A stretch of 64,000 bases of DNA from Vibrio cidicii. Its GTDB lineage: Bacteria; Pseudomonadota; Gammaproteobacteria; Enterobacterales; Vibrionaceae. The notes below the pieces were generated by a model that saw nothing but the letters and a program-made list of their open reading frames with translations, was not told the DNA's origin and searched no databases. The position numbers and the translations under genes are program-made. Each line of letters starts with the position of its first letter. Within the stretch, counting starts at the first letter, position 1. The DNA lies in NCBI RefSeq assembly GCF_009763805.1, contig NZ_CP046803.1, positions 1,254,757-1,318,756 on the forward strand, read 5' to 3'. Positions 6,733 through 63,520 of this stretch are shown in pieces.

Positions 6733-7282
6733 CTAAGCCTCAGTTAAGTTGCGGCTCTGTTTATTGCGTTTCGCGACCGATTTAAGAATGAAATAGCCCA
6801 CAACGGCGATCAGTACGGTGTTACCTGAGGCAATAATCGTCAGTTGGGTAAACACTTTTGTGAAAGGTTCGGCATATAACAGGGTATCGAGGAACGCAGA
6901 ACAGCCATAGCCAAATACGTTACCAAGTAGCGCGAGCAGCACAAACAGGGCAAAGTCTTTCATACTAAACTCGCCTTTTTCCAAGCGGTTGCGAGTCAGA
7001 GATGGGAAGAAGCCAATAATCAAACCAACCAAACCAGAGCCGATAACCCAAGTCAGCCACACGCCCCAACCGGCGAAACAGGTCAGTCACCCAGTGACCA
7101 ATAAAGCCCACCAAAAAGCCGACCAGAGGGCCAAAAAGAACAGAAAACAGCGCGAGGACCGCCATCGCTGGCTTGAGTGTGGTATTGGCAAAAACCGGAA
7201 TGCCAAACATGGGCAAGCCACCAATGCCGTAAAGCGCCGCACCGATTGCAATCACCACCACGGTTTTAGCTGAAAGATTCAT
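6733..7282 (-). CDS. ECF transporter S component, UPF0397 family (one-base frameshift)
   Basis: Substrate-binding membrane subunit of the ECF transporter, about 182 residues when restored. The N-terminal part (helices around [18 protein letters not shown] and [20 protein letters not shown]) is read from 7282; the C-terminal part ([19 protein letters not shown] onward) is in another frame. One extra A at 7076-7078 (GCGAAACAG for GCGAACAG) causes the break; removing it gives the family sequence [14 protein letters not shown]07155 members are annotated as riboflavin-type S components, but the ligand here is not known. First gene of the S-A-T operon. See the GAAAC finding for why this is probably not a true pseudogene. 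Confidence 0.85.
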
Positions 7283-7490
7283 AGTTAACCTCTGTTCAAT
7301 TGTCGAAAGAACACATCATTGTTCGCGATGAGCCGCCTGATTGTCTATGAAATAGACAAAACAACCAAGTCGCTTATGGTCGGTGCGATTAGTCATCAGA
7401 AAAGTTGTGATGTTTTCTGCATATCCTTATGACACGCTTGCTTTTTCCGCACACATAAAAATAAGGCACGCAGTATACAGAATTATATGA
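7283..7490 (-). promoter_or_regulatory. Promoter and structured 5' leader of the ECF operon
   Basis: On the minus strand a TATAAT at 7487-7482 could be a -10, leaving a leader of about 190 nt before the S component. The leader holds a nested hairpin: GTCAT 7392-7396 pairs with ATGAC 7429-7433, enclosing CAGAAAA 7397-7403 / TTTTCTG 7413-7419. It also holds a perfect 8-bp hairpin TTGTCTAT 7341-7348 / ATAGACAA 7352-7359. ECF vitamin transporters are often riboswitch-controlled, but I do not recognise a known class here. Confidence 0.4.
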
Positions 7491-7540
7491 GGTGAGGGAA
7501 TGGAGTGTGATGGGATGAAGTGAATGTGGGCGCTTTAGAG

Positions 7541-7573
7541 AAAAAAGAGCAGCGTGGGAAACCCCACCACTGC
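7541..7573 (-). terminator. Terminator after the TPR-GGDEF gene
   Basis: On the minus strand a GCAG...GTGGG / CCCAC...CTGC stem with a short loop is followed by TCTTTTTT, two bases past the stop codon. Confidence 0.7.
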
Positions 7574-7574
7574 G

Positions 7575-9159
7575 TTATTCTTCGGTACACACCTGATTGC
7601 GTCCGTTGGCTTTGGCGCGGTAGAGCGCTTTATCGGCGCGATAGAAGGTGCGTTGGGTATTTTCACCGTCGCGATGCATGGTGATGCCGATTGAAACGGT
7701 CAAACCGCGTTCACCTAAAATCTCTGTCCAGCCAAACTGGAAAATGCGTTCGCGGTAATTTTCAGCGTGCAGCTCGGCTTTAGCGAGGTCGGTATTTTCT
7801 AAGATCACTAAAAACTCTTCTCCGCCAAAACGCACACACGAGGCACCGCGAAACTTAAAGTAGGCGGCAAGCTCATGTGAAACGCTGACGATCGCCTTGT
7901 CGCCGACTAAATGGCTCAGTTCATCGTTGATCGATTTGAAGTGGTCGATATCGATCACCATTAGCGCAAATGGCGTTTCATGCAGCAGCAGATCTTTGAG
8001 TTTCACGTCCAGCCAACGTCGGTTGTGCAGCGCGGTGAGCGGATCGGTGAACACATCCTGTTGCAACTGCGCCATGGTGTTTTTGTGTTGCTGTGTGGTC
8101 TCTTTGAGTTCCTTGTTTTCAATCTCAGAGAGGATCAATTTCAGTTGCAGATCAAAACGGGAGATGCGGCGCAGCTGGCTTGCCCCCAGCTCGCTGATCG
8201 GGATGTGCTTCATCAGATCCGACTCAATACGGAAGCCTTTTTTCTCACATGCCAACGCGTCCTTAAATCGACCTTGCGCGGCTAATACCTTACTCATTGC
8301 ATCGTAAAACTGTTTTGCAACGATGGGAGAGGCCTTTAGCTCAATGTTCTTGGCTGCACTGACAAGCAGCATATTGGCGAGCTCTTGTTTGCCAATCGCA
8401 CACAGAGAGTAAGTGAGCTCGATACGGTTCATGATCGACAACCAGTTTCGAGTGTAGGCTGCTCGAAGAGTACTGCGTTTTTGACAGGGCCAGCAAGGCT
8501 TGCATGTGTTGGTTTTGCAATCGGTGCAACTTGGCTTGGTAAAGCAGAACTTGCCCTGAAAGAATTTTATCGCTGACCAGAATACTCAGCTCTTCACACT
8601 CTTTTAAGAGATCCTTGGCGACATTGACACGGCCCAAATGGATGTAGCAGGAGAGTAGGTAGAGTTTATAACGTAGCCGTAGTGAACGGCTGCTGATGGA
8701 GTGGTCAATGCCGTCAATTTTTTGATAGTAACGCAGCGCGCGGTTGTGATCGCCAAACGCATCGCAAAGGTTACCCATGCCGACAATCGAGGTTACATAT
8801 TCATCGATAAACCCGTGTTCAACGGCAATATTGGAGGAGGAGATGTATTCATTGAGTGCGGCAGTATAGTCACCACTGTCGACCAATCGTTCACTCAGGC
8901 TGGCTTTAACCGTGAGAATATCTTCGGCATCGTCAGGTAATTCAAGCAATTGAAGCGCTTGGCGTAACTCGTCAATGCTCAGTTGTAACTGCTTTAATTC
9001 ATAACGGTACTCTGCACTAATAATGTAGCAGTGCGCGCGCTCTTTGCGGGTGGAAGCAACATGCTGGCGAACATGATTCCAAAGAATAATGGCTTCTTCT
9101 CCGGCCACGGAGGCGGGATCAAAACCTGCATCGGTGACTTTATTCAGCAGCTTTTCCAT
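7575..9159 (-). CDS. TPR-containing diguanylate cyclase (one-base frameshift)
   Basis: A soluble signalling protein of about 527 residues when restored. The N-terminal two thirds are tetratricopeptide-like helical repeats (for example LSERLVDSGDYTAALNEY and DAFGDHNRALRYYQKI). The C-terminus is a GGDEF domain making cyclic di-GMP, with FTDPLTALHNRRWL, DIDHFKSINDELSH and an intact active-site GGEEF (RFGGEEFLVI). I see no inhibitory RxxD site upstream of GGEEF. The frame breaks at 8446-8448: GTTTCG on the plus strand should be GTTCG, giving LHSNWLSIMNRIEL across the join. It overlaps the upstream TPR gene by 20 bp, so the two are coupled. Confidence 0.88.
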
Positions 9160-10645: not shown

Positions 10646-10804
10646 CCGTGACAGTAAAGAGGGCGTCTAACACTTTCATTATATTGACGTGTCAAAAATT
10701 AGCACTATATCCGGGCTTATTTGTTCCGCTCGTTACCGCTGGGTTATGAATAATGGGCGTTATTTCACATTCTTAACTCAGGTTGAACCTTCTACAGTGC
10801 TGCA

Positions 10805-12280: not shown

Positions 12281-12324
12281 CCCCTCGGGATTATTCGGAT
12301 GGCCGAGCGAACCCGGCCAAAAGT

Positions 12325-13450: not shown

Positions 13451-14405
13451 ATGGAAAAGACAGGTATCAAAGTTGGCGTCAGCGCCTGTGTGCTTGGCGA
13501 TAAAGTCCGATTTGACGCTGGACACAAACTGAGCCGATTTGTTGTTCAGGATCTCGGTGCTTATATGGATTTCGTTTCTGTTTGTCCGGAAGTGGGAATG
13601 GGCATGCCTGTGCCACGCCCGACAATTCGTTTGGTCTCGGACGCCGAAACGCATTGCTTTACTGGAAACTAAAAATCCTGACAAGGATTACTCGCATGCG
13701 ATGTTGGCCTATGCCGAACAGAAAGTATCGCAATTGATGGATGAAGAGCTGAGTGGCTATATTGTCTGCGCTAAGTCGCCAACCTGTGGCATGGAAAAGG
13801 TCAAGGTGTACAAACAGCATGGCGCGGAGAAAGAGGGAGTTGGCTTATATACGCAAACTTTGATGCGCAAAATGCCGTGGTTGCCGGTAGAAGAAGATGG
13901 CCGACTGCATGACCCGGTATTGCGTGAAAACTTCATCACCCGCGTTTATTGCTTACATGATTTTAATCTGAATATTGGCCGCGTGCGCACACGCAAGAGC
14001 ATTGTCGATTTCCACTCACGCTATAAACTGACCTTGATGGCCCATCATCCGCAATCTTATCGTGAGCTTGGTCGTTTGGTCGCCGCGATTGCTGAGTATG
14101 ACTTGGAAGCTTTTATTCCCTTATATCGCGAGGGTTTGATGCGTGCATTGACCCATCGTGCCAGTCGCAAAAACAATACCAATGTGTTGATGCACTTGCA
14201 GGGCTATTTTAAGAAAGTGCTCAATAAAGAGCAAAAAGCGGAATTGGCGCGAACGATAGACGAGTATCGTCAAGGCATGCTGCCTTTGCTGGCGCCACTG
14301 ACGCTGATAAAACATTATCTCAACACTTATCCCGATGATTATCTGCACAGTCAGAAGTTTTTAGCCCCTCATCCTCAAGAATTGAAGTTACGTTATGGTT
14401 TATAA
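13451..14405 (+). CDS. DUF523-DUF1722 protein, YbgA-like (one-base frameshift)
   Basis: About 317 residues when restored. The N-terminal DUF523 domain (GVSACVLGDKVRFDAGH, VCPEVGMGMPVPRPTIRL, CAKSPTCGMEKVKVY) is followed by a DUF1722/YbgA domain (HSRYKLTLMAHHPQSYRELGRLV). This pair is usually found beside photolyase genes and its biochemical role is unknown. The break is one extra A at 13647-13649 (GCCGAAACGC for GCCGAACGC); removal yields VSDAERIALLETKNP. The ATG at 13451 follows GGTG-type spacing; upstream TTG starts are unlikely. It overlaps the MerR gene by 11 bp. Confidence 0.88.
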
Positions 14406-15204: not shown

Positions 15205-16611
15205 AACTGGTTTGGTTTAGACGCGATCTGCGCGTGATCGATAACCCCGCTTTGCAATATGCCACAGAAAACTCGCAGCAGGTGGTCGCCTGTTTTGTCG
15301 CCACGCCCACTCAGTGGCAATCTCAACATATGGCGCCTATCCAAGCCGACTGGATTTGGCGTCGCTTACCTGAGTTGCAGCGCGATCTCGCGGCGCTCAA
15401 TATTCCTACGCTTTACGCCGAAGTGGACACTTACCAACAGAGCGCAGAGCAAGTCGCAAGCTGGGCTAGGCAGCTCGGTGCAGACAGCGTGGCGATCAAT
15501 GCCGAATACGAAGTGAATGAGCAGGCGCGTGACCATTGGCTGGAAGCTGAGTTAACGCAAAGCGGCATGCATCTACAAAGTTTTCACGACAAATGTTTAA
15601 TGCCACCTGGTTCAGTGCGCAACAAGCAAGGTGAGTACTTCAAAGTCTTTACCCCGTTTAAACGTGCTTGGTTAAGCCAGTTTACGCTGCCCGTGATTAC
15701 CACCTCTTCTGCGGTTGCGACTTGTCACTTGCCGCAAAGCTTGGCTGAGCAAATTTTAACGCCTGACGCGCCCTTTTCTTTCCCAAGAAAAGCCAGCGAG
15801 GCTTGGCCTGCAGACAGCGCTTCGATTTTGCAGCGCCTCAGGGACTTTTGCTCAACGTCGGTGGATACCTACGACAAGCAGCGCGATTTTCCCGCTGTGG
15901 CTGGCACCAGTCAGCTATCGCCCTATTTAGCGTTAGGCGCGTTGTCGGTACGCCAATGCATCGTGCGTTTGCATTGGCAGCAAGCGTTTTTATCTCCGGG
16001 GCGGGAAACGTGGTTGAGTGAGCTGATCTGGCGCGAGTTTTATCAACATCTAATTTGGTTTGAACCTAAATTGGTAAAAGGGGCGGGCTTTGTCGCATGG
16101 GAAAGCAAACTCTGCTGGCCGGCTAAGTCGGCATGGCTTACACAGTGGCAGCAAGGGCAAACGGGGTATCCGATAGTCGATGCGGCGATGCGCCAACTGA
16201 ACGAAACGGGATGGATGCACAATCGCCTGCGCATGATCGTGGCGAGTTTTCTTACCAAAGATTTGCACCTCAACTGGCGCGATGGCGAGCAGTATTTTAT
16301 GCAGAATCTGATTGACGGTGATTTTGCAGCTAACAATGGTGGCTGGCAGTGGTCGGCATCCACTGGGTGTGACGGTCAGCCCTATTTTCGTATTTTCAAC
16401 CCGACCAGTCAGGGGGAAAAATTTGACCCAGATGGCCGCTTCATTCGCCGCTGGGTGCCTGAGCTGACAAGCGTACCGGATAAATACATTCATCAGCCGT
16501 GGAAACTGGCCTGGGAAAAGCATGCTCAGTTACCCAGCGCCGATGGTTGATCATAAGCGGGAAAGAGAGATAACCTTAGCGGAGTACAAAAGAGCAAAGG
16601 ACAGCGACTAG
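15201..16611 (+). CDS. phr: Deoxyribodipyrimidine photolyase (one-base frameshift near the end)
   Basis: A CPD photolyase that uses blue light and FADH- to split cyclobutane dimers. It has the antenna-domain start KLVWFRRDLRVIDNPAL and the FAD/DNA-binding segments WREFYQHL, GYPIVDAAMRQLNETGWMHNRLRM and the WSAS(T)GCDGQPYFRIFNP core. As read it stops at 16550 after 449 residues. An extra A at 16503-16505 (TGGAAACTGG for TGGAACTGG) shifts the frame; removing it gives WNWPGKSMLSYPAPMVDHK and a normal end at 16611, about 469 residues, the family length. The restored stop abuts the next start as TAGATG. Confidence 0.92.
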
Positions 16612-19006: not shown

Positions 19007-19958
19007 ATGGGCACATATAGGCTTATTGGGTTCAGATATATGTTTCAGAGCGATATTGGTCCGTTAGATGGCGATTCTTGGGAAGGCATCATTCAATCAG
19101 TTTTTAAACATAAATACGATACTTACCAAGAGATGGTTGCTTCACCTGGGGATCTTGGTATTGAAGGTTTTGTATTGGATGAGGGGATATTGATTCAGTG
19201 CTATTGCCCTGATGAGAATTACAATACTAAAACCTTGTATGAGAAGCAGCGAGACAAAATGACAGTGGATTTAAATAAACTGTCTAAGAATCAGCATGAA
19301 ATCTCCATGCATCTTGGCGAAGCTAAAATTTCTCAATGGATTTTTATAACGCCAGAAATTGCTAAACATGATTTACACGTACATGCCAGAACTAAAACCA
19401 AAGAAATATTGGCACTCAATTTGCCATTTATTGCAGATGACTTTCAAATTCTGATTAAAGATGTGCATGCATATATTAGTGATATCAGATCACTAGAGCT
19501 ACTCATGGGTAAGGAGATTTGTTTTGTCCCTTCAACTGGTGAATCGATTCCTGAGCCAATACTTAAGACAGAGTACGATAAAAATATTAGCGAAAAAAAT
19601 CAGATCAGAAGTGTTGTTAAAGGGGTATACAAGGACAATGTGCACGAGATGTTGAACTTTAAAACTAAAACCCAGTATCTTGATGGATATGACATATTAA
19701 GACGGATCTTTAATCAGTCCCCTGAGCTATACGAAACGTATTGCTAAAGTAGTTAACAGGTTTGAAGATGATGTCGAGATTCAGTCTTCGACTTGGCAGG
19801 GAGAGCCGCAAGATTTGATTAACAATCTTGAAGATAAACTGTTAGATAGATTTAGCAAAAATACATACATATCCGCTATTGAACACGAAGATTTGCAGTC
19901 TATCACTAAGCACATGATTGCTAGGTGGATTGCGGAATGTCCAATGAGGATTGAATAA
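19007..19958 (+). CDS. Nuclease-like first gene of an ABC three-component cassette (one-base frameshift)
   Basis: About 316 residues when restored. The N-terminus contains GDLGIEGFVLDEGILIQCYCP, which has the D-x-(E)GF ... Q-x-Y layout of PD-(D/E)xK-type restriction endonuclease folds; the C-terminus (KRIAKVVNRFEDDV onward) resembles the helical tails of ABC-3C effectors. The break is an extra A at 19734-19736 (TACGAAACG for TACGAACG), restoring ELYERIAKVVNRF. The stop overlaps the next start as TAATG, tying it to a small winged-helix-like protein and a Rad50-like ATPase. The region is AT-rich compared with the rest of the prophage. The nuclease call is an inference from the motif. Confidence 0.6.
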
Positions 19959-27785: not shown

Positions 27786-30330
27786 TTGAAAACACTCACC
27801 GAACCCACCGAAATCGAACTCTTTGACCTCGATAAATACGGTTTCAACGCAGAACAAAAACGCGCAGCTTCTCTGGTTTGTCAAAACTGGGGGAGCTTAC
27901 ACGTTTATCCGCAAAAGCCAAAGGCGATCGAAGAAGGCTGTTTTGCGGCTAGGCGTTACCAAGACGTTATCGAGCCAGAAGACCTCACCGTGCTTGAGAG
28001 AGTGCTGTTTGAAGCGGCGCCAGCGGATTTTGAGTGGGCCAAAGAAAAAGTAAACCGCCTGCCTGCGTACTTAACCAAATACTTCGTTAACCGTTACGTC
28101 AGCATTTACCAGTCAAAAGGCCGTTTTGAGGGCAACACCTTCTTATTGCAAAAAGTAGAGCCAGCGGTACAACGCGCTCTGCTGGTATTGCGCAAATACA
28201 AAAAGTTACCGACAACCCAAAAGGTCGCTTTGCTCAGTGAAGAGTTAGACACTGACACCGAGCAAAACGACTTTTCCAACCCAGAAAAGCCACAGCTTAC
28301 CTTTGATTTCAACAAAGCCGAGAAAAGCCGCAAGCCAGTAAAAAACAGGCTGCTTGCCGAGCTGGAAAACGACGAACTCAAAGAAATGGCGTTCAAACTC
28401 TCTCAGATAGTTGCTCGTTACTACCAGATTGAAAGCAGTAAATACCACGCAAAAACGACACTCGGCACCGAAATGGCGGTGGTGTTCACCTATGAGCAAA
28501 TGGCCAAGTTCGTCACTAATACCTTCGGCATGAAACCGCCGCGCAAGTACAAAGACCAGTCAGAACTTTCCGCGCTTCAAGACATATCAAAGCTAATCAA
28601 TCAGAAATGGTGGCTAGGTCGTTTGGTGAAAGCACGCAAGATTATGCGCGAGCATTTAGCCATTGCTATGGGACAGGTCTCTTCAAAGGCGTCGCCTTAT
28701 GCTTCTTGGGATTGCATTAAAGAACACAAAGAACAGCAAAAGCGTAACTGGGAGTTCATCAAACAAAATGAACTGTTTGATGAAGAGACAGGAGAAACCG
28801 CAGATCTTGCTGAAATGGTGCTGCGTAGTGTTTCTAACCCTGCGATTCGTCGTCATGAATTGATGGTTCGTTGTCGGGGCTGTGAAGACATTGGCAACGA
28901 GCTGGGCTTGCAAGGTTTGTTCTTAACACTGACTGCGCCTTCGAAATATCACAGCAGTTACAAAAAGGGTGGCTTTGTTCCTCACTGGAACGGAGCAAGC
29001 CCTCGTGATGCGCAAATCTATTTGAACAACGTATGGCAACGAATTCGCGCCAAGTTAGGCCGCGAAGATCTACGTTGGTTTGGTGTCCGTGTTGCTGAGC
29101 CACACCATGACGGTACACCTCACTGGCACCTGCTTATCTGGGTTAAACCAGAAGAGAAAGACATGATTTCCAAAATCTTCGTTGATTACGCAACCAAAGA
29201 AGATAAGCACGAGCTCTACAACAAAGACGGTGAGTTTGACTATTCACCGCGCTGTGATGTGGGCGAAATCGACCCAGAACTGGGTACCGCTACAGGTTAT
29301 ATCGCCAAGTACATTTCAAAGAACATCGACGGCTTTGCTATGGATGATGAAGTGTCTGACGAAACAGGAAAGTCAGTCAAAGACATGGCGAAGAACGTGA
29401 GCGCATGGAAAAGCCGCTGGAACATTCGTCAGTTTCAATTCTTTGGTGGTGCTCCGGTGACGACTTACCGCGAAACTACGCCGTTTTGCCAACCAGAACA
29501 AAAAAGCCTTTATGGAATATCTGTTCATGCAAGAGCGTGTAGACCTGCTGACTATCTACTCCATGCTTCAGCGTGATCTTGTTGGTCCAATCAAACCAAG
29601 CCGTTTAATCACAAACGAAGAGTTATTGAAGGTCATTGGTGACAGCTACGAATCGCGAATGAAAACAGATGATTCAAGTATTACCGAAACGCTCAGAGCG
29701 GCTGATCAAGGTAACTGGCAAGGTTACATCATGGGTCAGGGTGGCCCGTTTGTTCGCCGTGACGAACTACTGATTGTGAATGAGTACGAAGTGCTTCCAT
29801 TCGCTTCCCCTCACGGGGAAGACGTTCGAAAAATCAAGGGCTTCACAACCCCCGAAGGAACCATAGAAACCCGCACTAAGGTGTGGCTGATTCAGCCGAA
29901 AGGAACGGGGCAAGACCAAGCTGAAGCGGAGGCTCTTGCTCTTACAGGCACCGCAGGTGCCCCTTGGAGTTCTGTCAATAACTGTACGCACCCACCGGGC
30001 GAACAGGGTACCAGTGATAACGAAAGGCCATTAGATCCGTTAGTGGAATACGAGATAAGTAGGCTGATATCTGACCATGATTTCACCGAAAGCATCCGGC
30101 AGAGACTCATGAAAGGTCAGTGGATAAGGGTCACAGAAGAGAAAAGCGTCAAATTGCACCTTGGCGATGGCCAGCGACGCCCAGACCAAATCGTCTACCG
30201 CCACAACATCAAGCCAGATTTGAGTTGGCTAGGGGAAACTGAGCCAGAAATTGAACCGTTAACAGAAGAGAACTACCAACAGCCAAACCTTTCATATTTT
30301 GAGTATGTGGAAGACTGGCCGTTGGAGTGA
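27786..30330 (+). CDS. A: Replication protein A, rolling-circle HUH endonuclease (one-base frameshift)
   Basis: P2 gpA-type initiator, about 847 residues when restored. The HUH motif HWH is at residues 446-448 and the paired nucleophiles are Tyr505 and Tyr509 (YIAKY), so it should nick the prophage origin and join strands in rolling-circle replication. An extra A at 29473-29475 (CGCGAAACTA for CGCGAACTA) splits the gene; removal gives TTYRELRRFANQNKKAFMEY across the join. The first usable start is a TTG at 27786, 10 bp after the previous stop, with a weak ribosome site, so the true N-terminus is uncertain. Confidence 0.92.
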
Positions 30331-32106: not shown

Positions 32107-32788
32107 ATGACTTCAGCACTTACTTTTCAAAACACTCATTTCGACGTTATAGAACAGAGCAACCAAATTTGGCTTACTGCTGCGCAAATAGGCAGAGCAT
32201 TAGGCTATGCGCGTGAAGATTCTGTCAGCCGTATCTATGATCGTAATCAAGACGAGTTTTCAAACGCGATGACTGAGACCGTCAAATTGACGGTCTCAGG
32301 GAATTATCAAAAAACAGTCCGTATTTTTTCTCTGCGCGGTGCCCACCTGATTGCAATGTTCGCCAGAAACGTCGATTGCCAAACAGTTCAGAAAGTGGGT
32401 GCTCGATATTCTCGATCAGGAAACCAAAACACAGACCATCATCCCCATAACCAATCCTGCTAGCATTCCCAAAGCCAACTGGCCAATCACTTACCGTACC
32501 GACTGGAAACCTGCCAGCATTACCTTATTCAGCAAAACTGTGCACTACATTTGCTTCGACCTGCAACCAAAACCATTTAGCTGTGAGTTCAGTGCAAAAC
32601 ACACTCCGCAGATTTATCAGGCAACGTTCCACTTTGCCGATCAGCACAAACGACCAATCAAATTGCATCAGGGGAATCAACCCGCGATAGGTGATGTGGG
32701 TTATTTCGAATCGACTCACCTTGATGACTTATGGGTACAGGTGATCGGTTTCGCTGCACGGTGTAATAGCTGTTGTGCATTGCTGTGA
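32107..32788 (+). CDS. BRO-N antirepressor (one-base frameshift)
   Basis: About 226 residues when restored. The N-terminal BRO domain (NQIWLTAAQIGRALGYARED, SLRGAHLIAMFART) is DNA- or repressor-binding in phage antirepressors; the C-terminal half is not recognised and ends in a Cys-rich tail. The break is an extra A at 32367-32369 (CCAGAAACG for CCAGAACG); restored, the sequence reads AMFARTSIAKQFRKWVLDIL, the family pattern. AGGAGG gives a strong start at 32107. With the upstream RNA and leader it forms an antirepressor control unit that would inactivate the CI repressor on induction. Confidence 0.82.
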
Positions 32789-34387: not shown

Positions 34388-35402
34388 CTATATCTCCAAA
34401 GAAAATTGCAATTGAAGCTGACTTGGAATCTCCGGGTCGCTGTTTACCGCATCTGCAAAGCGCTTGCAAACGGGAATCACCTCGTAACGGTCGTAAACTT
34501 CACTCACCTTGAGTGGGTCGGGAATGGTTGAGCCCGTTTGCGGAATCATCCCGCCCATGCCAGCAGGGAAACGATGGCCTACAAACACATCTTGCGCGGT
34601 AATGTTCTTAATGCGCTCAAACTCATCTTTCGTGGCAATGTCGCCAACGGGTATCAGTTGAATGCCTTTCTCTTTCCCGTTCGGGATGTTCACAAACATA
34701 CTGCGGAAGTTACCAATTCCCTTAGAGCTGGCGATCTTGTTTTTCAGCGCCTCTTCATCTTCTTCGCTCAGGTTTCGGGTCGGTTGAATAGAAGATAAAA
34801 CCCATATGGGCGCCGTTCAGGTAATAGCGGCGGCGAAACAGTGTCGCGTCACGATTCAGTAAGCTGCTTTGAATGCTGCCCAGGTAATCAGGCAGTCCAT
34901 AAATTTGTTGCTGCGGGTCATACTGCGGAATAAAAATCACATCCTTCGCTTTGAACGTCTTCTGCTTGTTGTCACGCAGCAACTGCACAAAATCGCCGTT
35001 CTTACGCTTGCGCATGTGTACCATTGGCAGCGGCTCAAGGGCGATCACATTCTTCATATAGCTGCGAATCTTCACAAACGCCGCCATACCAAGGCCGAAG
35101 TAATCCCAACAGGCGTTATTCATTTTGTACATCGGGATCGCCCCGCCACCGAGAAAACGCCCCGCCACATAGTTAGCCCGGGCTTTAAGCAGTGAACCGT
35201 GATACCCGTTAGCGTTGGCAATATCCGCCAAGCCTTTCAGTGAAATCGGTGGCTCCCAGTAATCGTCAAAATCGTTGTAAACCAGCTCACAGTAGCGCGT
35301 CATCCAGCTATTGGTATCAACGGGCTCCGGGTTCGGGTCAAAGCTGTATACCGATTTGCTTTCACTGGCCTCTGCATTTAATTGGGTTAATTGCTCTGTC
35401 AT
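34388..35402 (-). CDS. Q: Portal protein, P2 gpQ-like (one-base frameshift)
   Basis: About 337 residues when restored (P2 Q has 344). It builds the dodecameric portal at the head vertex. Typical segments are [55 protein letters not shown] and the C-terminal [14 protein letters not shown]. The break is an extra T at 34773-34775 on the plus strand (GTTTCG for GTTCG); removal restores [20 protein letters not shown]. Its start overlaps the stop of the terminase gene as ATGA. Confidence 0.92.
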
Positions 35403-37409: not shown

Positions 37410-38295
37410 ATGCCAAAAACCAGTGATTGGGTAGTCATCGCCACCGAAGGCAGCACCGTAGACGGGCGCAAAATCACCAAATCGTGGATCAACGATATGG
37501 CCTCACTGTATGCAAAAGATGAATACACCGCCTTAATCTGGCCAGAACACTGGCGCAGTTTCGTGGGGCCCATTTGAAGGTAAAAACTGGGGGGTGGTTG
37601 AAGAGCTAAAAGCCGAAGTGTTAGACGACAAACTCCGCCTGTTTGGCAAAATCACGCCAAACCAATATCTGCTGGATGCCAACCAAGAAGGCCAAAAGCT
37701 ATTTACCTCGATTGAACCGAATCCCGATTACAAGGGCGAGGGGCGTTGCTATTTAATGGGCCTAGCTGTGACTGACTCCCCAGCCTCCACAGGTACAACG
37801 CAACTCAAATTCTCACGCCGCCACGGTGAAGAAACGGCAATTGAATCGGACGCGCTAGAAGAGCTCCACTTAGAGAAATGCTTCAGCCGCAAAGATCGCC
37901 TTTTCTCCGCCTTGCGCACCTTTATCTCTGGCGAAGAGCCAGAAACACCAAGCAAACCTCAGCCAGAGGACGAAAAACCCATGAACCAAGAGCAGTTCAA
38001 CCAAGTGATGAGTGCCATTGGCACGATAAGCACTAAGCAAGGTGAGCTGGAAGAAAAGCTAAACGCCTTTTCAGTTCAGCAAAAGCCAGAAGTCGAAACG
38101 CCGGAAGACGTTCCCTCTGGTGATACTTCAGGTGGAATGACTGCTGAGCAATTTAGCCAGCTAAATGAAAGCCTGAACCAAATGACCAGCAAACTGGGCG
38201 ATTTGGAAACCAAATTCAACCAACTGAGCCAGCAAGGCCCTGAAGACCAAGGCCCTGACGATGCAGGCAATAGCAACACTATGGAGGTGATCTAA
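37410..38295 (+). CDS. O: Capsid scaffolding protein and protease, P2 gpO-like (one-base frameshift)
   Basis: About 294 residues when restored. The N-terminal serine protease has candidate triad Asp18 (TVDGR), His47 (WPEHWR) and Ser123 (TDSPAS). The C-terminal half is a scaffold of acidic Gln-rich coiled coil (FNQVMSAIGTISTKQGELEE, LNQMTSKLGDLETKFNQL). An extra T at 37559-37561 (CAGTTTCG for CAGTTCG) breaks the frame; restored it reads HWRSSWGPFEGKNWG. ATG 37410 gives the family N-terminus (PKTSDWVVIATEG). The stop overlaps the capsid start as TAATG. Confidence 0.92.
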
Positions 38296-41686: not shown

Positions 41687-42809
41687 ATGGCAACCGGAAA
41701 GGTAGAGGTAAACAACCTCAATTTAGGACAAGGCGGCATTCCCGAAATTGAACGCCACTTGCTCTACATCGGGCGCACCGACAAAGCCGAACTGCAAGGC
41801 CAAGTCACCCGCATCAACAACATGACCGACCTTGCAAAAGTCGTCGCCGATGATGCACTCGGTGCCAACGTTATCGCCGCTCAGCTCAACGGCAAACAAA
41901 ACTGGACAGCGGCCATCTTCGGCTTAGCCGAAGGCGATACATGGCAGCAAGCAGTAGACATCGCCAACCGTACCGATTCATTCGAAGGGATTTGCCTTTG
42001 TGATGTCGTCACCGACAAGGCCGAGTTTGATGCCATGCAGGCCAAAGCCACTGAACTCACCAGCAAACTAGGCCGCTGGGTATTCTTCCTTGCCGCGTGT
42101 CCGGGCATTGATGCCGAAAATCAGACATGGGCGCAGTACGAAACCGCCATGATCAATCTGGTGAAAGACGTGGCCGCCAATCTGGTGACCGCCGTACCGC
42201 AGCTCAACGGCAATAACCTTGGTGTACTGGGTGGCCGCTTGTGCGACCGCGCCGTCACCGTGGCAGACAGCCCGATGCGCGTAGCAACAGGTAACGTGCT
42301 TGGCTTGGGCGATGAGCCAGTAGACAGCGCAGGCGAAACCGCTGGAAATGAGCACCGTCGCCACCTTGGCCGAAGCGCGCTACTCGTTGCAGCAATGGTA
42401 CGCCGATTTAGAAGGCATTTACTGGACAGACGCCACCACGCTCGAAGCCAAAGGCGGTGATTACCAGTACTTAGAATACGTTCGTCCGGTGCACAAACTT
42501 AACCGCCGCGTACGCATTAAAGCCATTCGCCGCATTGCTGATCGAATCTTCAACTCAACGCCGCCAAGTATTGAGCTTAACCGCACCTATTTCCGCAAAG
42601 ACATGCGCGATATGTCGAAAACCATGGAAATCGGCGGCATCACCTTTCCCGGTGAAATCATGCCGCCAGAGGATGGCGACGTCACCATCCAGTGGATGAC
42701 CAAAACCAAAGTGATGATCGGTTTGATGGTGCGCCCGCATAACTGCCCGAAACACATCGTGGTCAACATCGCGCTAGACCTTTCCAACCCTGCAGACTCG
42801 GAGGCGTAA
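41687..42809 (+). CDS. FI: Contractile tail sheath, P2 FI-like (one-base frameshift)
   Basis: About 373 residues when restored. NLGQGGIPEIERHLLYIGRT near the start and PPSIELNRTYFRKDMRDM with GGITFPGEIMPPEDGDV near the end mark a sheath subunit of Vibrio P2-like phages. The break is an extra A at 42336-42338 (GGCGAAACC for GGCGAACC); restored it reads SAGEPLEMSTVATLAEARY. Four bases separate it from the tube gene. Confidence 0.9.
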
Positions 42810-47645: not shown

Positions 47646-48826
47646 CATTCCAAAACCCGACTACTCAGAACTGGTCAAACAATCCGGCATTCCGACCGAT
47701 GAAGCAGGCTGGAAAAAAGTGCTCAAAGACGAAATGGAAAAAGAAGGCTGCATCATTGCCAACGATTCGCCGTTTCTCCCCATTCTGGCGCTTGTTTGAA
47801 TCGGCCATTACCAAAGTGACCGTTTGGCTCATCATGACCTTGTTGGTTGGCTACGTACTGCCGAACATGTTTGTTGCGACCGCAGTAGACCAGTGGCTCG
47901 ACTTACTCGCATGGCAATGCAAGCTGGAACGCAAAGGCGCAACCAAAGCCAAGGGATTGATCGCCTTTCAGCGTGCTGCCGCAAAAGGGCCAGCGTTGGT
48001 TATCCCCAAAGACACTTGGGTTCAGACCGAACCGATCAACGGCAATATCTACCGTGTTCGCGTCCTCGCTGATACCACATTGCCAGAAAACCAAACCATG
48101 GTCATGGCCGAGGTAGAAGCGGAAAACGAAGGCGCTGCCTACAACCTCGGTGAAGGTTACTACCACATTCTGCCCACCGCCATCAGTGGCATTGCCGCCG
48201 CCACCAATCCAGCCGAATGGCTGCTGGCCGCAGGGGCAGACAAAGAAAGCAACGATGAACTTCGCCTGCGCATTCGCAACCAGTGGAGCGCTGTAGCGCG
48301 TTGGCACATTGATGCCGCGTATCGGGCGCTGCTGACCAGCCGAGCAGGCATCAACGACGATAACGTCTACTTTGAGCACAATGCACCGCGTGGCCCCGGT
48401 ACGGCTAACGCCTACATTCTGCTCGATACCGGAGAGCCTTCTGCCGACATGCTGGCCGATCTCAACGCCCACATCGTCACCGAAGGGCAGCACGGCCATG
48501 GCGATGATTTGCAGGTAATGGCGATGCCGGAAACCCAGCACGACATCGTGTTCCGCGCTTGGCCAAAACCTAGCCTCACGCTGGATGAGCGCAACGTACT
48601 CAAAGCCAATATTGAAAAATTCATCGGCGCCGCCTTTCGCGAAAACACCGATTACAAGCCCACCGTGACAAATCCGATTAAGAGATTCAGTTTTTCACGC
48701 TTGGGCCAAGAGCTGCATGCGCAGTTCCCGGAACTGGAATCGCTCGAATACGACAATGCCGACATCATCAACAACCTGACCGTGCCCCGCATCAGAACGC
48801 TGGAGGTATCCATTGAAAATACCTGA
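47638..48826 (+). CDS. J: Baseplate wedge protein, P2 gpJ-like (one-base frameshift)
   Basis: About 395 residues when restored. Includes the Baseplate_J hallmark GAAYNLGEGYYHILPTAISG and LRLRIRNQWSAVARWHIDAAY. The break is an extra T at 47773-47775 (CCGTTTCTC for CCGTTCTC); restored it reads NDSPFSPFWRLFESAITK. It starts inside the DUF2590 end and ends inside gpI. Confidence 0.9.
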
Positions 48827-56882: not shown

Positions 56883-56990
56883 TACCCCAAATCTTCGCGA
56901 TATGATCGATTGGCCGCTTTTACCGTCGATCGTATGTAAACGAGATGTATTCCTACTACGGTCATGTGATATTAATCTCAAAAATAATGC

Positions 56991-57011: not shown

Positions 57012-57069
57012 CTATTTATAGGCAAAATAGGCACGTTTATTAATTCTATAAATCTAAGTGCCTTTTCTC

Positions 57070-59077
57070 ATGAAATTTGCTCATGTTTTACTCATGCTGG
57101 CTGTGGCTCCGGCAGGGATTACTTTTGCCCAAGATTCTTACCAATGGCTGCGCGATGAGAGTCGCCAATCACCGCAAGTGCTGGAGTATTTGCAGCAACA
57201 CAATCGCTTGACTGACGAGGCACTGTCACCTGTACGTGATTTGCAGCATTCGTTACTGAGCCAATGGCAAGCGATGACGGTGAGTAAGGCTGATGAACCT
57301 TGGCAAAGCCGTTTAACAATGGAATGGAAGCTCTCATCACAACGGGGCGAGCTTAGTTTGTTGCGCCGAGCAAGCGCAAAATCGCCAGCTCAACTGGTCT
57401 ACTCGTTTGCGCCAAGACAAGCGCAAGCCGATTATTACCAAATCGGCGCTTGGGCGGTCAGCCGCGATCAAAGTAAGTTGCTGTTTAGTGAAGATATCGA
57501 CGGCTCAGAGCGCTATCAACTGGTGGAAGTCGACCTCAAAAAAGGGGGAGAGAAAATCTTAGCCACCGGGCTCGATCAGTCAATGCTTTACTCGGCCGAT
57601 GGGCAATATGTTTACTTGATTCGTAAAGATCCCACCACGCAAAGACCAAGTGAAATCCGCCGCCTAACCGTCGCCGACTTGAGCGAACAACGGATTTGGC
57701 AAGAGGAGAGAGCAGACTGGTTACTCTCTTTTTATCAAGCCAGCGATCCGCGTTATGCCTTGCTGCAAAGCAATAATGAAAATAGCAGTGAACAAAAACT
57801 GCTCGATCTACAAAGCGGTGAAGTGCGGCCAATTCGCCCAGCGCAAGCAGGCCTTGAGTATTACGCCGATGTCGCCAAAGACACGCTGTTCATCAAGAGT
57901 AATTTGCACGGCCAAGCGCGCTTGTATACCGCGCCGCTGAAGCAGCCAAGCGAGTGGACACGCTTTACTCAGGCGCTGGATGGTCTGCAGCAGTTTCTAT
58001 CTGTTTGCCGACGCGCTAGTGGCCGTGACTCAGCAAAAGGCCGATTCACAAGTCTTGGTATTTGACTATGCTGGCGAGTTAAAAAAGCGTTTGCCGCTTA
58101 ATCAGCAAGGACAAGTGGCGTGGGTATCACGCAATGGCGATTTTGCCAGCAATCAACTTCGTCTGCGCAGCATGTCCATGACCACTCCGCCAATGTGGCA
58201 AGAGCTGAATGTGAAGACACTTGATTTAGTGACGTTGTCACGAGATGTCTATCAAAACTACCATGCTGAGCGCTACGTTTCTGAGCAGGTGATCGCCCAT
58301 CAAAATGGCGTTGAGGTGCCGATCACGCTCGCCTATCGCAAAGATAAACTCACCGCGCACTCGCCAGTGATTTTGTACGGCTACGGGGCTTACGGTTTTA
58401 CCATGAAACCTTACTTTATGCCGCAAATCATCAGCTTGCTGGATCAAGGGGCGATTTACGCCATTGCCCATGTGCGCGGCGGCGGGTACTACGGCGACGC
58501 TTGGCACCAAGCAGGGCGAGGTGAGCAAAAACGCCACTCGATGGATGATTTCGTCGCCGCCGCCAAAAGCCTGCAACACTACCAACAGGGTGAGCGTTTG
58601 GTTTACGCCATGGGCTCTAGCGCAGGTGGGACTTTAGTGGCCGGAGCGCTCAATCAAGCGCCGCAAGCTTTTGCCGGAGCGGTGCTCAAAGTGCCGTTTG
58701 TCGATGTGGTGAACAGCATGACCGACACCAGCCTACCGTTGACTGAGCAGCAATATGGCGAGTGGGGCAATCCGCAGGTGGAAAGCGCGTTAAAAGCGAT
58801 GCAAGCCTATGACCCATATGGAAATGTCAAAGCCGTTCCTTATCCGCCCTTATTGGTGCAGATAGGCCTTAATGATCAGCGCGTGCCTTATTGGGAAGGA
58901 GCCAAATATCTCAGCAAGTTGGCCGAACTGAGCACAGGTCAAGGTCCTTATTTACTGCAAACCGATTTCGAATCGGGCCATGCCAGCGATCGCCGAAAAG
59001 CGCTGGAGCAACAAGCGTTGGAATACGCGTTTCTGATTTCACTATTTAAAACATCGAGCCAAGCGGAGCAAAAATGA
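57070..59077 (+). CDS. ptrB: Secreted S9 prolyl-oligopeptidase-like protease (one-base frameshift)
   Basis: About 668 residues when restored. Signal peptide ends near THFAQ-type ITFAQD; the N-terminal beta-propeller covers about 20-380; the catalytic alpha/beta-hydrolase domain has Ser517 in MGSSAGGTL, Asp in NDQRVPYWE and His in SGHASDRRK. An extra T at 57994-57996 (CAGTTTCTA for CAGTTCTA) breaks it; restored it reads GLQQFYLFADALVAV. It lies before hutR with ATGA overlap, as ptrB-hutR in V. cholerae (recalled). Unlike cytoplasmic oligopeptidase B it has a signal peptide, so it may free haem or peptides outside the inner membrane. Confidence 0.88.
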
Positions 59078-61215
59078 AGTTGAATCCTGTTTGTGCGGCG
59101 GTACTGTCGGTACTGGCTGCAAATGTCGTCCACGCGCAAGAAAACCTAGCGGTGATGGAAGAAGTGGTCGTTACGGCGAATAGGATTGAGCAGCCGATCT
59201 CGAAGGTGGCGGGCAGTGTCGCGGTAGTGACGGGGGATGCGCTGGAAGAGAAAGGGATGACCGAGCTGTACGATGCGCTACAAGGCGAGCCCGGCGTGAG
59301 CGTGACGGGCGGTGCGGGCCGACCACAAAACATCACCATTCGTGGTATGACGGGCAATCGTATCAGCATCATTCGCGATGGCATTCGCTCTGCTGACGGC
59401 TTTGGCGCGAATGACATCAATGATCAAGTGGGGCGCGATACCTTTGATCTTGCCAATGTCAGTACCATTGAGCTTATCAAGGGCGCGAGCTCATCGGTGC
59501 ATGGTTCGGGGGCGATTGGCGGCGCGGTGATCTTAAAATCCAAGCAGCCGAGTGATTTTTTGCAAGGCAAGGATTTCTACGCCGATGTGTCTGGCACGTA
59601 CACCGACATCAGCCAAAAGTACAAAGGTGCGAGCAATCTTGCTTTTCGTTCTGGCGATACTGACAGCCTGATCAGCGTGGCTTACTGGCAAGGGCAAGAG
59701 ACGCGCAATTTTGATCAAGATACCTATAACAGTGAGCTTGATGGGTATAGCGTGGCGTACAGCCTCAACCATTTTTACAGCGACGAGCTGATGTTAAAAG
59801 CGCGCGCCGAGCTGTACACACAAAACCAAACTCGTTTGGAAGGCTCCGCCTCGATTCAAAAAGATGGAGAGTGGAAAATAGAAGACTTCGCGCAAGATCA
59901 AAGCAGCGAAGAATATAGCGCTTATCTTGGCGCTGAACTTACCCCGCTGGATCCCACTTGGTTCCGTCAGTTAGATACGAAACTTTATTGGCGTCATACT
60001 GAGTCAGACGAGCAAACCAACCGTTTGATGCATCAAGTGGATCACAATAATTTGCTGGTCAAGCGCCGCGAACAGGAACACAAAACCTTCACCGATGAAA
60101 CCATCGGCATGCGCGCTGATTTCACGCAGTCGCTTTTCGCCGCAGGCGCAGATCATCAACTGGCATTTGGCATCGAACTGGCAAGTGACTACTACCAACG
60201 CACCGATCGCGATAAGGTGCTGGATTGGAACGGCGTCAAAATCTCAGCCAAGCAGCCGTTTGCCCCGGCTCGCGCTTACAACCTTGGGCTGTATGTGCGA
60301 GACATGATCGAGTTGCAACAATGGACCCTTACCGGCGGCTTGCGCTTTGACGCTCATCGCTTGACGCCAGATGCCGATGGCGAAGTCGGCGGTTTCCCGC
60401 TGAAAGATATCGACAGTTCAGAGCTGTCGCCGAGTTTGTCGTTGTCGCGTGAGCTTTTTGCCAACAACCGGGTTTATCTCTCTTACAACCACGGTTACCG
60501 AGCCGCGGAATATGACAAAGCCTATGGCTATGTGTCACACGAGTTCGTTCCTCTGACCCCTTTTGTGATTGCGCCGAATCTGGATCTCAAAGCGGAAACC
60601 TCGGAATCTTTTGAGATTGGCAGCAAATTTGATAACGGCCGCGTGCGTTTGTCGCTGGCTGCGTTTTACAACAAGTTCGACAATTTCATCGATATCGTCA
60701 CCATCAGCTTTGATACCAACAGCGGCAATTATATCAAGCAATATCAAAACCTTGAGGGCGTAGAAACGTATGGCGCTGAAGTCTCTGCGGGTTACGCCTT
60801 GAGCCAAAAGTGGGACGTTGGCGCCAAGCTGGGTTATGTCGATGGTAAAGAGGCAGACGGCGATTACATTCGCAGTATCACACCACTAGAAGGCAGTGTG
60901 TCGCTCAGCTATCACGTGCAAGATTTTAGCGCCTACGGCTTATGGAGCTGGGCAACGGCGATGGATCGCGTACCAACCTGCCAAACCGATCTCGGTTTAG
61001 CGGCTCAGTGTGCCACCACCAGCGCGTGGAATCGCGTGGATATCGGGGCGACCTACCAGCTGTCTAAAGATCTTCGTCTCAGTGCGACGATCGCCAACCT
61101 GTTTGACAAAAAGTACATCCGTTATCAAGACGTTGCCGGCATTCTTGACCAAGACAAGCACTACTCGAGTGAGCCGGGACGCTATTTCACTCTCAATGCC
61201 AAATATCAGTTCTAG
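59074..61215 (+). CDS. hutR: TonB-dependent haem receptor
   Basis: 713 residues: signal peptide (ANVVHA), TonB box-like MEEVVVTANRI, plug domain (GVSVTGGAGRPQNITIRGM; GSGAIGGAVIL) and beta-barrel ending in YFTLNAKYQF with terminal Phe. The haem-receptor FRAP/NPNL region appears in altered form (GYRAAEYDKAYGYVSHEF; IAPNLDLKAETSESFEIG). Recognised as HutR from gene order with ptrB. It takes haem across the outer membrane using TonB energy. Fur box upstream of the operon. Confidence 0.88.
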   Translation: MKLNPVCAAVLSVLAANVVHAQENLAVMEEVVVTANRIEQPISKVAGSVAVVTGDALEEKGMTELYDALQGEPGVSVTGGAGRPQNITIRGMTGNRISIIRDGIRSADGFGANDINDQVGRDTFDLANVSTIELIKGASSSVHGSGAIGGAVILKSKQPSDFLQGKDFYADVSGTYTDISQKYKGASNLAFRSGDTDSLISVAYWQGQETRNFDQDTYNSELDGYSVAYSLNHFYSDELMLKARAELYTQNQTRLEGSASIQKDGEWKIEDFAQDQSSEEYSAYLGAELTPLDPTWFRQLDTKLYWRHTESDEQTNRLMHQVDHNNLLVKRREQEHKTFTDETIGMRADFTQSLFAAGADHQLAFGIELASDYYQRTDRDKVLDWNGVKISAKQPFAPARAYNLGLYVRDMIELQQWTLTGGLRFDAHRLTPDADGEVGGFPLKDIDSSELSPSLSLSRELFANNRVYLSYNHGYRAAEYDKAYGYVSHEFVPLTPFVIAPNLDLKAETSESFEIGSKFDNGRVRLSLAAFYNKFDNFIDIVTISFDTNSGNYIKQYQNLEGVETYGAEVSAGYALSQKWDVGAKLGYVDGKEADGDYIRSITPLEGSVSLSYHVQDFSAYGLWSWATAMDRVPTCQTDLGLAAQCATTSAWNRVDIGATYQLSKDLRLSATIANLFDKKYIRYQDVAGILDQDKHYSSEPGRYFTLNAKYQF

Positions 61216-61224
61216 GAGTTCACC

Positions 61225-63520
61225 ATGAAGTTAACCCCTTTAGCGCTGTCACTTTTGGTTGCTGCAGCGCCAGCGATTCAGGCCGGACAGTGGGATTACC
61301 CTGCCGAAGGCACGACGGTCGCCGATGCCGCGCAAGCCAAAAGCTACCTTGATGCCCATTATGCGCAGGACGGCGAGTTTATCTTGCGTTACCAAACGGC
61401 GTCAAAGCTGGGCCGCCATTACAATTTTGATGTTTGGGTCAATGGTGTTTATCAGCCGCAGCGCACCTTGGTCGTGACGACTAACCCAGAGCAGCAAGTG
61501 GTGCGTGTGTTTAAAAGTGTGCAAGACACGCAGCTGCGTAACGGCCAAGCGCTGGTGGCGGCAGAAATCGAGTCACCGCGCACGCTGGAAGCTGACGAGC
61601 CGCCAGCACTGAGCTCAGGCAATTTGCTGGACGTCACTGTCTCGCTGTTTGACCCAGATCTGCGCACCATGCAGCAACAAGCAGCGCCAGAGACGGTTTG
61701 GGCTTCATTGGATGAATACCCGCAAGCGGTCGAGTATGTTGAGAAATCCATTCAAGTGTTGCAAGCCGATGGCCAGCTCTATCTTGCCAATCCGCGTGTC
61801 AAGCAAGTGGACGCGCAGGCGCTGCTCGCGGTCACTGAGCAGGGTGGTGAGCCGGTGCGTGACAGTGGTGATTTCTTAGCGCCTGAGGGCGTTGAAGCGT
61901 TTCCTTCTATTGATGCGTTGCAAAGTGTGCGTTTGGGTGACGATGCTTTTCCGCAGCTCATGGCGTTTTATCATCTCGATAGCTCGCTGCGCTATTTAGC
62001 CAGCCTGAACTACACCTTGTTTAGCGAGCCACTGCGTTTTGATGCGCGCGGTTTAGCCAAGGACAATTCCAGTTACTACTACGGCCCGCGTGCGGTGATG
62101 TTCGGTATCGGTGGCGCGTCGCCTGACGCCATCGATGCCGATGTGATCCGTCATGAGCTCGGTCACGGCATTCATTATCAGATAGTGCCGGACTGGGCTT
62201 ATGGACACACCGGCGCGATTGGCGAAGGGCTGGGAGACTATTGGGCAGGCAGCGCCAGCTATCGTCAGCAATATTTGGACGCTTCTCGTCGTGGCCAAGA
62301 GTTTGAGATTGATACCGTATTTAATTGGGATGGTGTGTTTGGCGTACGCCGCTCGACCCGCAGCTTGTGGAATCAGCGCGCGCGCTACTTCGAAGATGCC
62401 GAATACCCCGCGCACGTGAGTGTGGGAGGTGAGTTAGGCGACGAGCTTTGGTCAACGCCGCTGTTTCAAGCGCTCAAAGCGGCGGTCGCCCGTTATGGCG
62501 ATGGCAGTGATAGCGTGTTTCGAGAGTTTGACACCATTGTGCTTGAGGGTATGTACGGGGTTGGTCGTGGGGTAAAAATGCACGATTTAGCGGAGTCGAC
62601 GGTTTTTGCTGCCAAAACGCTGTTTCCAAACAAGGAATATGCGCAGTTTCTTATTGAGAGCTTCAATCGTCATAACCTGCTCAAAGCGCCATTTAACGTG
62701 CGCTACAAATCCCGTTACATTGGACAAAGCGAACCAGTGGAACTCAGCCTGACGGCCAATGAGCGTCAAGCGAGCATTCAAGGTCAATGGCAGCTCAACG
62801 GAGCGAAGGTGCAAGAGATCGCGACCACCTTATCGGATGCGCAAACCTTGCAGGTCGCACTGCCCGATGGGCTTGTTTGTGGCGCGCAGTTTGACTCGAC
62901 TCTGGCGTTGGATTATCAGTTCGCCGACAGACTAAAAGCGCAGTCGTGGCGCGACATCGTATCGCTAGTGAACGGCACGCCGCTGCTGCAAACTCCAGCC
63001 AGAAACCTGAATGCGCCTTTGTTGGATGCCAAAGTCGATAGCCAAGGCAGGACAAGCCCCGGCAACAAGATCTTTGTGCAAACCCTAACGGACAAAACGC
63101 GCAAAATTGACAGCAGCTTCGCGGTTTATTTGCACATCGAGCACAGCGCACTGCAAGACCTGCAGGTGACGTTGATCTCTCCGCAAGGCAAATCGGTGCC
63201 ACTGCTCAATCACCAATCTGGCTCTCAGCACGGTTTTCAAGGTTACTTCACGGCTCAGTATGACGACGAGCTGCAAGCGCTACTCGGTGAACCAAGCTGG
63301 GGCACTTGGCGTCTTGAAATATCTGATCGCGTCTCGGGGAACGTTGGGGTTCTGAAAGCGTGGGGCGTAAGTCATTTTGCTCAATATCAATGCAGTGCGG
63401 GCAGCCGAAAAAATACGGAAGGTGAGAGTCAGAGCAGCCGTTTCCGGCGGCAGCGGTTCTCCTTTTGCTTTGCTCGGGCTGCTACTGCTTGCCATGGTGA
63501 GAGCCTTGCGCTCTCGATAA
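61225..63520 (+). CDS. Secreted zinc metalloprotease with P-domain and GlyGly-CTERM (one-base frameshift)
   Basis: About 764 residues when restored. Signal peptide (LVAAAPAIQAG), propeptide-like N-terminal half, zinc site HELGHGIHY (His310, Glu311, His314) with GAIGEGLGDYW supplying the third ligand, and a C-terminal proprotein-convertase P-domain (SFAVYLHIEHSALQDLQVTLISPQG). As read, the frame ends in a basic tail; deleting one T at 63441-63443 (CCGTTTCC for CCGTTCC) restores SGGSGSPFALLGLLLLAMVRALRSR in form, a GlyGly-CTERM rhombosortase signal (Gly-Ser run, membrane helix, basic end), ending at 63520. It follows hutR by 9 bp. Confidence 0.88.

What the first reader, a model, noticed from the sequence alone, without database searches (positions are those of the whole stretch)
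7076..63443. Thirteen genes broken by the same one-base insertion, always inside GAAAC/GTTTC
Breaks at 7076-7078, 8446-8448, 13647-13649, 16503-16505, 19734-19736, 29473-29475, 32367-32369, 34773-34775, 37559-37561, 42336-42338, 47773-47775, 57994-57996 and 63441-63443 all have three A (or T) between G and C, and all are repaired by changing GAAAC to GAAC. Host and phage genes, both strands, are hit. Ordinary decay or homopolymer error would not choose one 3-base context. GAAC/GTTC is the published DNA phosphorothioation site of Dnd systems in E. coli B7A and Salmonella Cerro 87, and only part of the sites are modified there. I infer consensus error at modified GAAC sites. Some GAAC and GAAAC sites in this window are in frame, so the error is partial.
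Basis: partly seen in the sequence, partly recalled or inferred. Interest (0 to 1): 0.9.

Follow-up and report, generated by a model that had tools for sequence, protein, structure and literature searches.

The report
Backbone-sulfur DNA marks misread as insertions
A Vibrio-like genome in the databases looks as if hundreds of its genes were broken at the same short DNA word, but the breaks are very probably sequencing errors at places where the bacterium's own defence system puts sulfur into its DNA.

Summary
All 13 sites are GAAAC/GTTTC words 1-19 bases from a one-base-gain call of a codon-usage HMM, at its loosest setting, that knows nothing of the word. Ten of 13 lie in DNA that aligns to close relatives or a phage; at 10 of 10 the window is one base longer. 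Three rest on the HMM. Over 464 kb of this genome GAAAC ranks first of all 5-mers at gain calls (60 of 110, 9.8 expected). The genome carries dndB, dndC, dndE and dptFGH; dndC is itself hit. Two closed relatives (96-97% identical over 6 kb) lack dndC and dndE and lack the effect. Flanks of the broken words prefer A/C before and G/T after, the published context of phosphorothioated GAAC/GTTC. A second species (G010, dnd+) repeats word and flanks (92 of 160, 15.9 expected). I conclude: consensus errors at phosphorothioated GAAC, not mutations. The platform is unknown, and 16 of 18 closed dnd+ genomes of the genus show nothing, so dnd is not sufficient. "Always GAAAC" is slightly too strong: some one-base differences lie elsewhere.

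The parts
7075..7079 (+). GAAAC word at a reading-frame break (host gene); intact copies exist in relatives
8445..8449 (-). GAAAC word at a reading-frame break (host gene); intact copies exist in relatives
13646..13650 (+). GAAAC word at a reading-frame break (host gene); intact copies exist in relatives
16502..16506 (+). GAAAC word at a reading-frame break near the end of a DNA photolyase gene; intact copies exist in relatives
19733..19737 (+). GAAAC word at a predicted reading-frame break inside the inserted element
   Evidence: HMM only; no aligned copy found
29472..29476 (+). GAAAC word at a predicted reading-frame break inside the inserted element
   Evidence: HMM only
32366..32370 (+). 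GAAAC word at a predicted reading-frame break inside the inserted element
   Evidence: HMM only
34772..34776 (-). GAAAC word at a reading-frame break in the P2-like prophage; intact copy exists in phage PV94
37558..37562 (-). GAAAC word at a reading-frame break in the P2-like prophage; intact copy exists in phage PV94
42335..42339 (+). GAAAC word at a reading-frame break in the P2-like prophage; intact copy exists in phage PV94
47772..47776 (-). GAAAC word at a reading-frame break in the P2-like prophage; intact copy exists in phage PV94
   Evidence: aligner's gap lies 3 bases beside the word
57993..57997 (-). GAAAC word at a reading-frame break (host gene); intact copies exist in relatives
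63440..63444 (-). GAAAC word at a reading-frame break (host gene); intact copies exist in relatives
   Evidence: HMM only at its loosest setting

Best explanation
The breaks are not in the living chromosome. The strain has an active Dnd system that puts a phosphorothioate (sulfur in the DNA backbone) into part of its GAAC/GTTC sites, preferring A or C before and G or T after. When native DNA was read and assembled, some of these sites entered the consensus as GAAAC/GTTTC, one base too long, which breaks the frame wherever the site lies in a gene. Shown here: the word, the one-base excess against relatives, its spread through a genome sample, the dnd genes, the flank signature and its repetition in a second dnd+ species. 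Inferred: that the sites carry phosphorothioate in this strain, that the error arose in native-DNA reads, and that no accurate polishing removed it. Not known: the platform and the physical step (for example a polymerase pause read twice, or a shifted pore signal).
For: GAAAC is first of all 5-mers at gain calls: 60 of 110 against 9.8 expected, p 5e-34, in 464 kb (44 of 66 against 5.9 at a stricter setting). A homology search without the HMM found 9 breaks in 39.8 kb, 8 with GAAAC (0.88 expected), and all 8 shift the frame as one extra base would. Against the near relatives G141 and G186 (about 42 kb each) 12 of 15 and 13 of 20 one-base gains are at GAAAC, while 0 of 3 and 0 of 7 one-base losses are. 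The dnd locus aligned to that of Vibrio cincinnatiensis 19-VB00020 over 7,241 bases has 396 mismatches and 3 indels, all three one-base gains at GAAAC; they fall once in dndC and twice in the methyltransferase gene. Of seven gain sites in a 20-kb sample six lie in an ORF of a relative, among them polA, glnA, glnG and hemN. dndB, dndC, dndE and dptFGH are present; G141 and G186 have no dndC and are not among the 29 of 227 genus genomes with dndE. Flanks: A/C before and G/T after in 41 of 64 broken words against 660 of 3,071 GAAC/GTTC words, p 6e-13; in G010, 54 of 95 against 615 of 3,210, p 2e-15. PMC9521924 (passages read) reports M at -1 and K at +1 for phosphorothioated GAAC/GTTC. G010 shows 92 of 160 gain calls with GAAAC against 15.9. 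PMC9069010 (passages read) detects phosphorothioated GAAC/GTTC by nanopore base-call error.
Against: Sixteen of 18 closed dnd+ genomes of the genus show nothing (13 of 127 gain calls with GAAAC against 10.3 expected, 60 kb each), so dnd alone does not cause it. Three pairwise comparisons among five dnd+ E. coli records show no GAAAC indel. The contrast 2 of 18 dnd+ against 0 of 13 dnd- is weak by itself. No raw reads, no platform and no direct evidence of phosphorothioate in this strain. In this genome, though not in G010, loss calls show a mild GAAAC excess too (12 of 68 against 5.7), and one alignment to distant relatives shows 4 of 20 losses with GAAAC against 0.7 expected, which I take for gap-placement noise. 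Fifty of 110 gain calls have no GAAAC near. A word-by-word alignment to distant relatives was inconclusive (6 of 11 sites shorter, 5 same length).
Confidence: 0.9

Rival explanations
1. The insertions are real: a mutator process, or phosphorothioation itself being mutagenic, has put extra bases at GAAC sites across the genome.
For: The sites carry the phosphorothioation context, so a mutagenic effect of the mark would give the same map.
Against: The aligned samples give about 0.3 gains per kb (13 in 42.4 kb), which would extrapolate to over a thousand breaks, with polA, glnA and hemN and the DNA-marking gene dndC itself among those seen. A cell without dndC could not go on marking. Sixteen other closed dnd+ genomes show no such change in 60 kb each.
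Confidence: 0.02
2. The error is caused by a methylated base in or near GAAC, for instance by the dnd-associated methyltransferase (TIGR04096) next to dndB, not by phosphorothioate.
For: A TIGR04096 gene lies in the locus, and unusual base modification is a known cause of motif-bound nanopore errors (PMC10687267, passages read).
Against: The word and its symmetric flanks match the published phosphorothioation context. The Listeria errors of that paper were mismatches, not one-base gains. Methylation of GAAC in this genome was not tested.
Confidence: 0.06
3. Ordinary homopolymer-length error of a long-read platform.
For: The extra base sits in a run of A or T.
Against: Runs of 5 or more are not significantly enriched at gain or loss calls (12 of 110 against 15.9; 14 of 68 against 9.8, p 0.11), and six other XAAAY words in the window are hit far less.
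Confidence: 0.01
4. Programmed frameshifting or slippage restores these genes in the cell.
For: None found; this would need a slippery site at each break.
Against: Both strands and unrelated genes are hit, relatives have the shorter word, and three A are not a known slippery site (recalled).
Confidence: 0.01

Closest known systems
DNA phosphorothioation by Dnd proteins at GAAC/GTTC (Salmonella enterica Cerro 87; Escherichia coli B7A, the latter recalled)
   Same: dndB, dndC, dndE and dptFGH homologues are in the genome; the word GAAC and the A/C before, G/T after context agree with PMC9521924
   Different: Here the mark is seen only through its supposed footprint in an assembly; phosphorothioate itself was not measured
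Modification-mediated systematic errors in nanopore assemblies (Modpolish, PMC10687267)
   Same: Motif-bound consensus errors in a genome that carries a particular DNA-modification system
   Different: There the errors are mismatches at GCAGC/GCTGG and indels were not the cause; here a one-base gain at a backbone-modification motif
Nanopore and SMRT mapping of phosphorothioate (PMC9069010; PMC9521924)
   Same: Signals of native DNA are disturbed at phosphorothioated GAAC/GTTC
   Different: Those works map read errors or polymerase kinetics on a known reference; the passages that I read do not report the error surviving into a finished consensus

Membership tests
Dnd phosphorothioation system (in the window's genome) | dndB, dndC and dndE homologues in one cluster | tested here: met
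   TIGR03233 and TIGR03184 over their cut-offs; TIGR03183 (dndC) spread over two ORFs, the longer over the cut-off; PADLOC DndB, DndC, DndE
Dnd phosphorothioation system (in the window's genome) | dndD; dndA or an IscS substitute | not tested
   The dndD interval spans the border of two fetched stretches and was not scanned; IscS was not searched
Dnd phosphorothioation system (in the window's genome) | dptFGH restriction partner | tested here: met
   TIGR03238, TIGR03236, TIGR03237 over their cut-offs
Dnd phosphorothioation system (in the window's genome) | Sulfur present at GAAC/GTTC in this strain | not testable with these tools
   Needs LC-MS, iodine cleavage or raw reads
Modification-mediated consensus error | Errors centred on one motif | tested here: met
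   GAAAC first of all 5-mers at gain calls
Modification-mediated consensus error | Absent from close relatives without the modifying enzyme | tested here: met
   G141 and G186: 0 of 10 one-base losses of the window against them are at GAAAC
Modification-mediated consensus error | Present in every assembly that has the enzyme | tested here: not met
   Only 2 of 18 closed dnd+ genomes of the genus; platform and polishing unknown, so this separates 'sufficient' from 'involved'
Modification-mediated consensus error | Vanishes when amplified DNA is read | not testable with these tools
   Needs the strain or its raw data

The most novel reading that the evidence does not exclude
Finished public genomes of some dnd+ bacteria carry a readable imprint of their phosphorothioate marks: frameshifts at GAAAC record which GAAC sites were sulfur-marked, down to the six-base context A/C-GAAC-G/T, so phosphorothioation specificity and site choice could be mined from assemblies without new wet work. 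Many apparent pseudogenes in such genomes are false.
Probability: 0.75. Interest if true: 0.65.

Novelty: new variant of a known kind. Interest (0 to 1): 0.55.

Why it matters
Genomes of this type would show hundreds of false pseudogenes (extrapolated), may have inflated contamination figures (3.23 here, 5 in G010, against 0-2 in most closed genomes listed; the link is an inference), and would mislead studies of gene decay or of broken prophages. The same errors appear to record which sites carry phosphorothioate, a mark otherwise mapped by special chemistry or raw long-read signals, and agree with the published flank context in two further species. Nine literature searches showed, among the papers they listed, none whose title or shown abstract describes one-base gains at phosphorothioated GAAC in finished assemblies.

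Tried and rejected
The E. coli collection has no near match to window 1-25000. I looked for the effect among E. coli: 204 of 5,426 complete genomes match a dnd query (206 with another query, of which 60 were listed). Two records were picked for odd spans (AR_0374, APEC 102026) and compared with others: three pairs among five dnd+ records. The differences (11, 9 and 2 bases in the first pair; four of 1 base, one of 3, one of 13 in the second; none in the third) have no GAAAC. So E. coli stays open. A class-wide search gave 6 of 369 genomes with DndE, this one included, and I did not sample the others. A word-by-word alignment of break sites to distant relatives was inconclusive: 6 of 11 shorter and 5 same length for this genome, 6 of 11 and 3 for G010, 2 of 5 and 3 for this genome against G010, 2 of 2 for G010 against this one; no relative had GAAAC at any. 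At about 70% identity the gap often falls beside the word; the 94-97% relatives replaced it. Alignments at 72-76% identity to loci of G012, G032 and G010 mix a few GAAAC gains (2 of 14, 2 of 5, 1 of 6, 1 of 7, 0 of 4) with many other one-base gaps. A first script failed on a file name. Weak word excesses in other dnd+ genomes (G092: GGACC; G219: GACCC) are near what the number of tests would give.

Considered and rejected: real mutation, homopolymer error, programmed frameshifting (see rivals).

Full report
Setting. The window is the last 64 kb of contig C1 (1,318,756 bases) of a two-contig genome of 4.75 Mb, in a genus of 227 held genomes. I recall this layout as typical of Vibrio, and the dndB of this genome has its best named match, 99% identical, in Vibrio cincinnatiensis. 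The organism itself was not named by any search.

The observation. All 13 stated positions hold three A or T between G and C. To test the breaks without using the word, I wrote a frameshift-tolerant hidden Markov model of codon usage, trained on the window and 20 other stretches of the genome (464 kb). At its loosest setting 13 of 13 sites in the window lie 1-19 bases from a call of one gained base and 0 of 13 within 25 bases of a call of a lost base; stricter settings keep 12 and 8. The model makes further calls (46 gains and 34 losses at the loosest setting); from their places many look like overlapping gene ends, which I did not count.

Genome sample. Over the 464 kb GAAAC is first of all 5-mers at gain calls: 60 of 110 against 9.8 expected, 44 of 66 at a stricter setting. 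Loss calls show at most a mild excess (12 of 68 against 6.0; p 0.01). Homopolymers of five or more, GATC and CCWGG are not significantly enriched at gain calls (CCWGG 4 against 1.4, p 0.05), and the 50 gain calls without GAAAC show no comparable word. A homology method without the model, using 800 ORFs of 19 other genomes, found 9 breaks in 39.8 kb, 8 with GAAAC against 0.88 expected, and all 8 shift the frame as one extra base would.

Direct comparison. A genus-wide search (189 of 227 genomes scored) found two close relatives, G141 (97%) and G186 (96%), over 6 kb. Aligned over about 42 kb each (93.5-97.4% identical by piece), this assembly is one base longer at 15 and 20 places, of which 12 and 13 are GAAAC, and one base shorter at 3 and 7, none of them GAAAC. 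Six of the 13 sites lie in this DNA, 6 of 6 longer than both relatives. Four more lie in a P2-like prophage aligned to Vibrio phage PV94 (12.8 kb, 90% identical), 4 of 4 longer; in that alignment 4 of 9 one-base gains are at GAAAC and 0 of 7 one-base losses. The other three sites have no aligned copy in what I fetched. A broader check against more distant relatives gave 12 of 30 gains with GAAAC against 1.1 expected, but also 4 of 20 losses against 0.7; G010 gave 10 of 34 gains against 1.2 and 0 of 29 losses; eight other dnd+ genomes gave 4 of 90 gains against about 2.5.

The cause. The genome carries dndB, dndC, dndE, dptF, dptG and dptH, an enzyme of the family that restricts phosphorothioated DNA (SBD-HNH type, a recalled name) and a dnd-associated methyltransferase. 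dndC and the methyltransferase are both split between frames. Aligned to the dnd locus of Vibrio cincinnatiensis 19-VB00020 over 7,241 bases, the locus has 396 mismatches and only three indels, all one-base gains at GAAAC, one in dndC and two in the methyltransferase gene. If GAAC marking explains the breaks, dndC must work in the cell, so its break must be an error. In a 20-kb sample 6 of 7 gain sites lie in an ORF of a relative: polA, glnA, glnG, hemN, yihI and one with only sub-threshold family matches. G141 and G186 have no dndC and are not among the 29 genomes with dndE.

The signature. Broken words prefer A/C before and G/T after: 41 of 64 have both, against 660 of 3,071 GAAC/GTTC words of the same genome. 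I computed the flank table before reading the passages of PMC9521924 that report M at -1 and K at +1 for phosphorothioated GAAC/GTTC. Its C at -2 and G at +2 are only trends here (30% against 23%, 44% against 32%, not significant). Among the 20 sites proved by alignment 16 have A/C, 16 have G/T and 13 have both. Of the relatives' GAAC/GTTC words, 11 of 125 with both flanks read GAAAC here, against 9 of 366 without (two relatives pooled, so shared sites count twice).

Repetition and limits. Beside this genome I sampled the 17 other dnd+ genomes of the genus with at most four contigs, and 13 genomes with at most five contigs that are not among the dndE matches (40-60 kb each, G010 460 kb). G010 repeats everything: 92 of 160 gain calls with GAAAC against 15.9, both flanks in 54 of 95. 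The other 16 dnd+ genomes give 13 of 127 against 10.3, the 13 dnd- genomes 5 of 55 against 4.6, and 33 of the 80 named dnd+ loci, hand-picked multi-contig drafts of several genera, 5 of 72 against 5.7. So the effect needs something besides dnd, most simply a read type and no accurate polishing; no call shows the platform. The absence of homopolymer error argues against an unpolished early nanopore assembly (inference).

Scale. Thirteen gains in 42.4 kb is 0.31 per kb, roughly 1,450 in the genome if uniform; PMC9521924 gives about 0.84 marked sites per kb in Salmonella. On these figures perhaps a third of marked sites would be misread; that ratio is a guess across species.

Verdict. This is an assembly artefact with a biological cause. 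Motif-bound errors from DNA modification are known (PMC10687267, passages read), and phosphorothioate is known to disturb nanopore and SMRT signals (PMC9069010 and PMC9521924, passages read). Among the papers listed by nine searches I saw none that describes one-base gains at phosphorothioated GAAC surviving into finished genomes; most subscription papers are not in that library.

Noticed in passing
17548-54877: An inserted element of about 37 kb with a P2-like prophage, related to Vibrio phage PV94, flanked by a 14-base repeat; G141 and G186 have the uninterrupted host DNA at this place.
   Followed up: partly
L016:16677-17555 and L017:7379-10285: Beside the dnd locus lie an enzyme of the family that restricts phosphorothioated DNA (NF045808) and a protein like type IV restriction enzymes: a cell that seems to mark its DNA with sulfur next to an enzyme family said to cut such DNA.
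   Followed up: no
   Followed up: no
G092 stretches L068-L070 and G219 stretches L071-L073: Weak excess of other words at frameshift calls in two other dnd+ genomes (GGACC, GACCC); could be chance given the number of tests, or another motif.
   Followed up: no
dnd locus, L017 against L116: The dnd gene block is 94.5% identical to that of V. cincinnatiensis, while two relatives 96-97% identical to the host over 6 kb lack dndC; it may have been acquired recently.
   Followed up: partly
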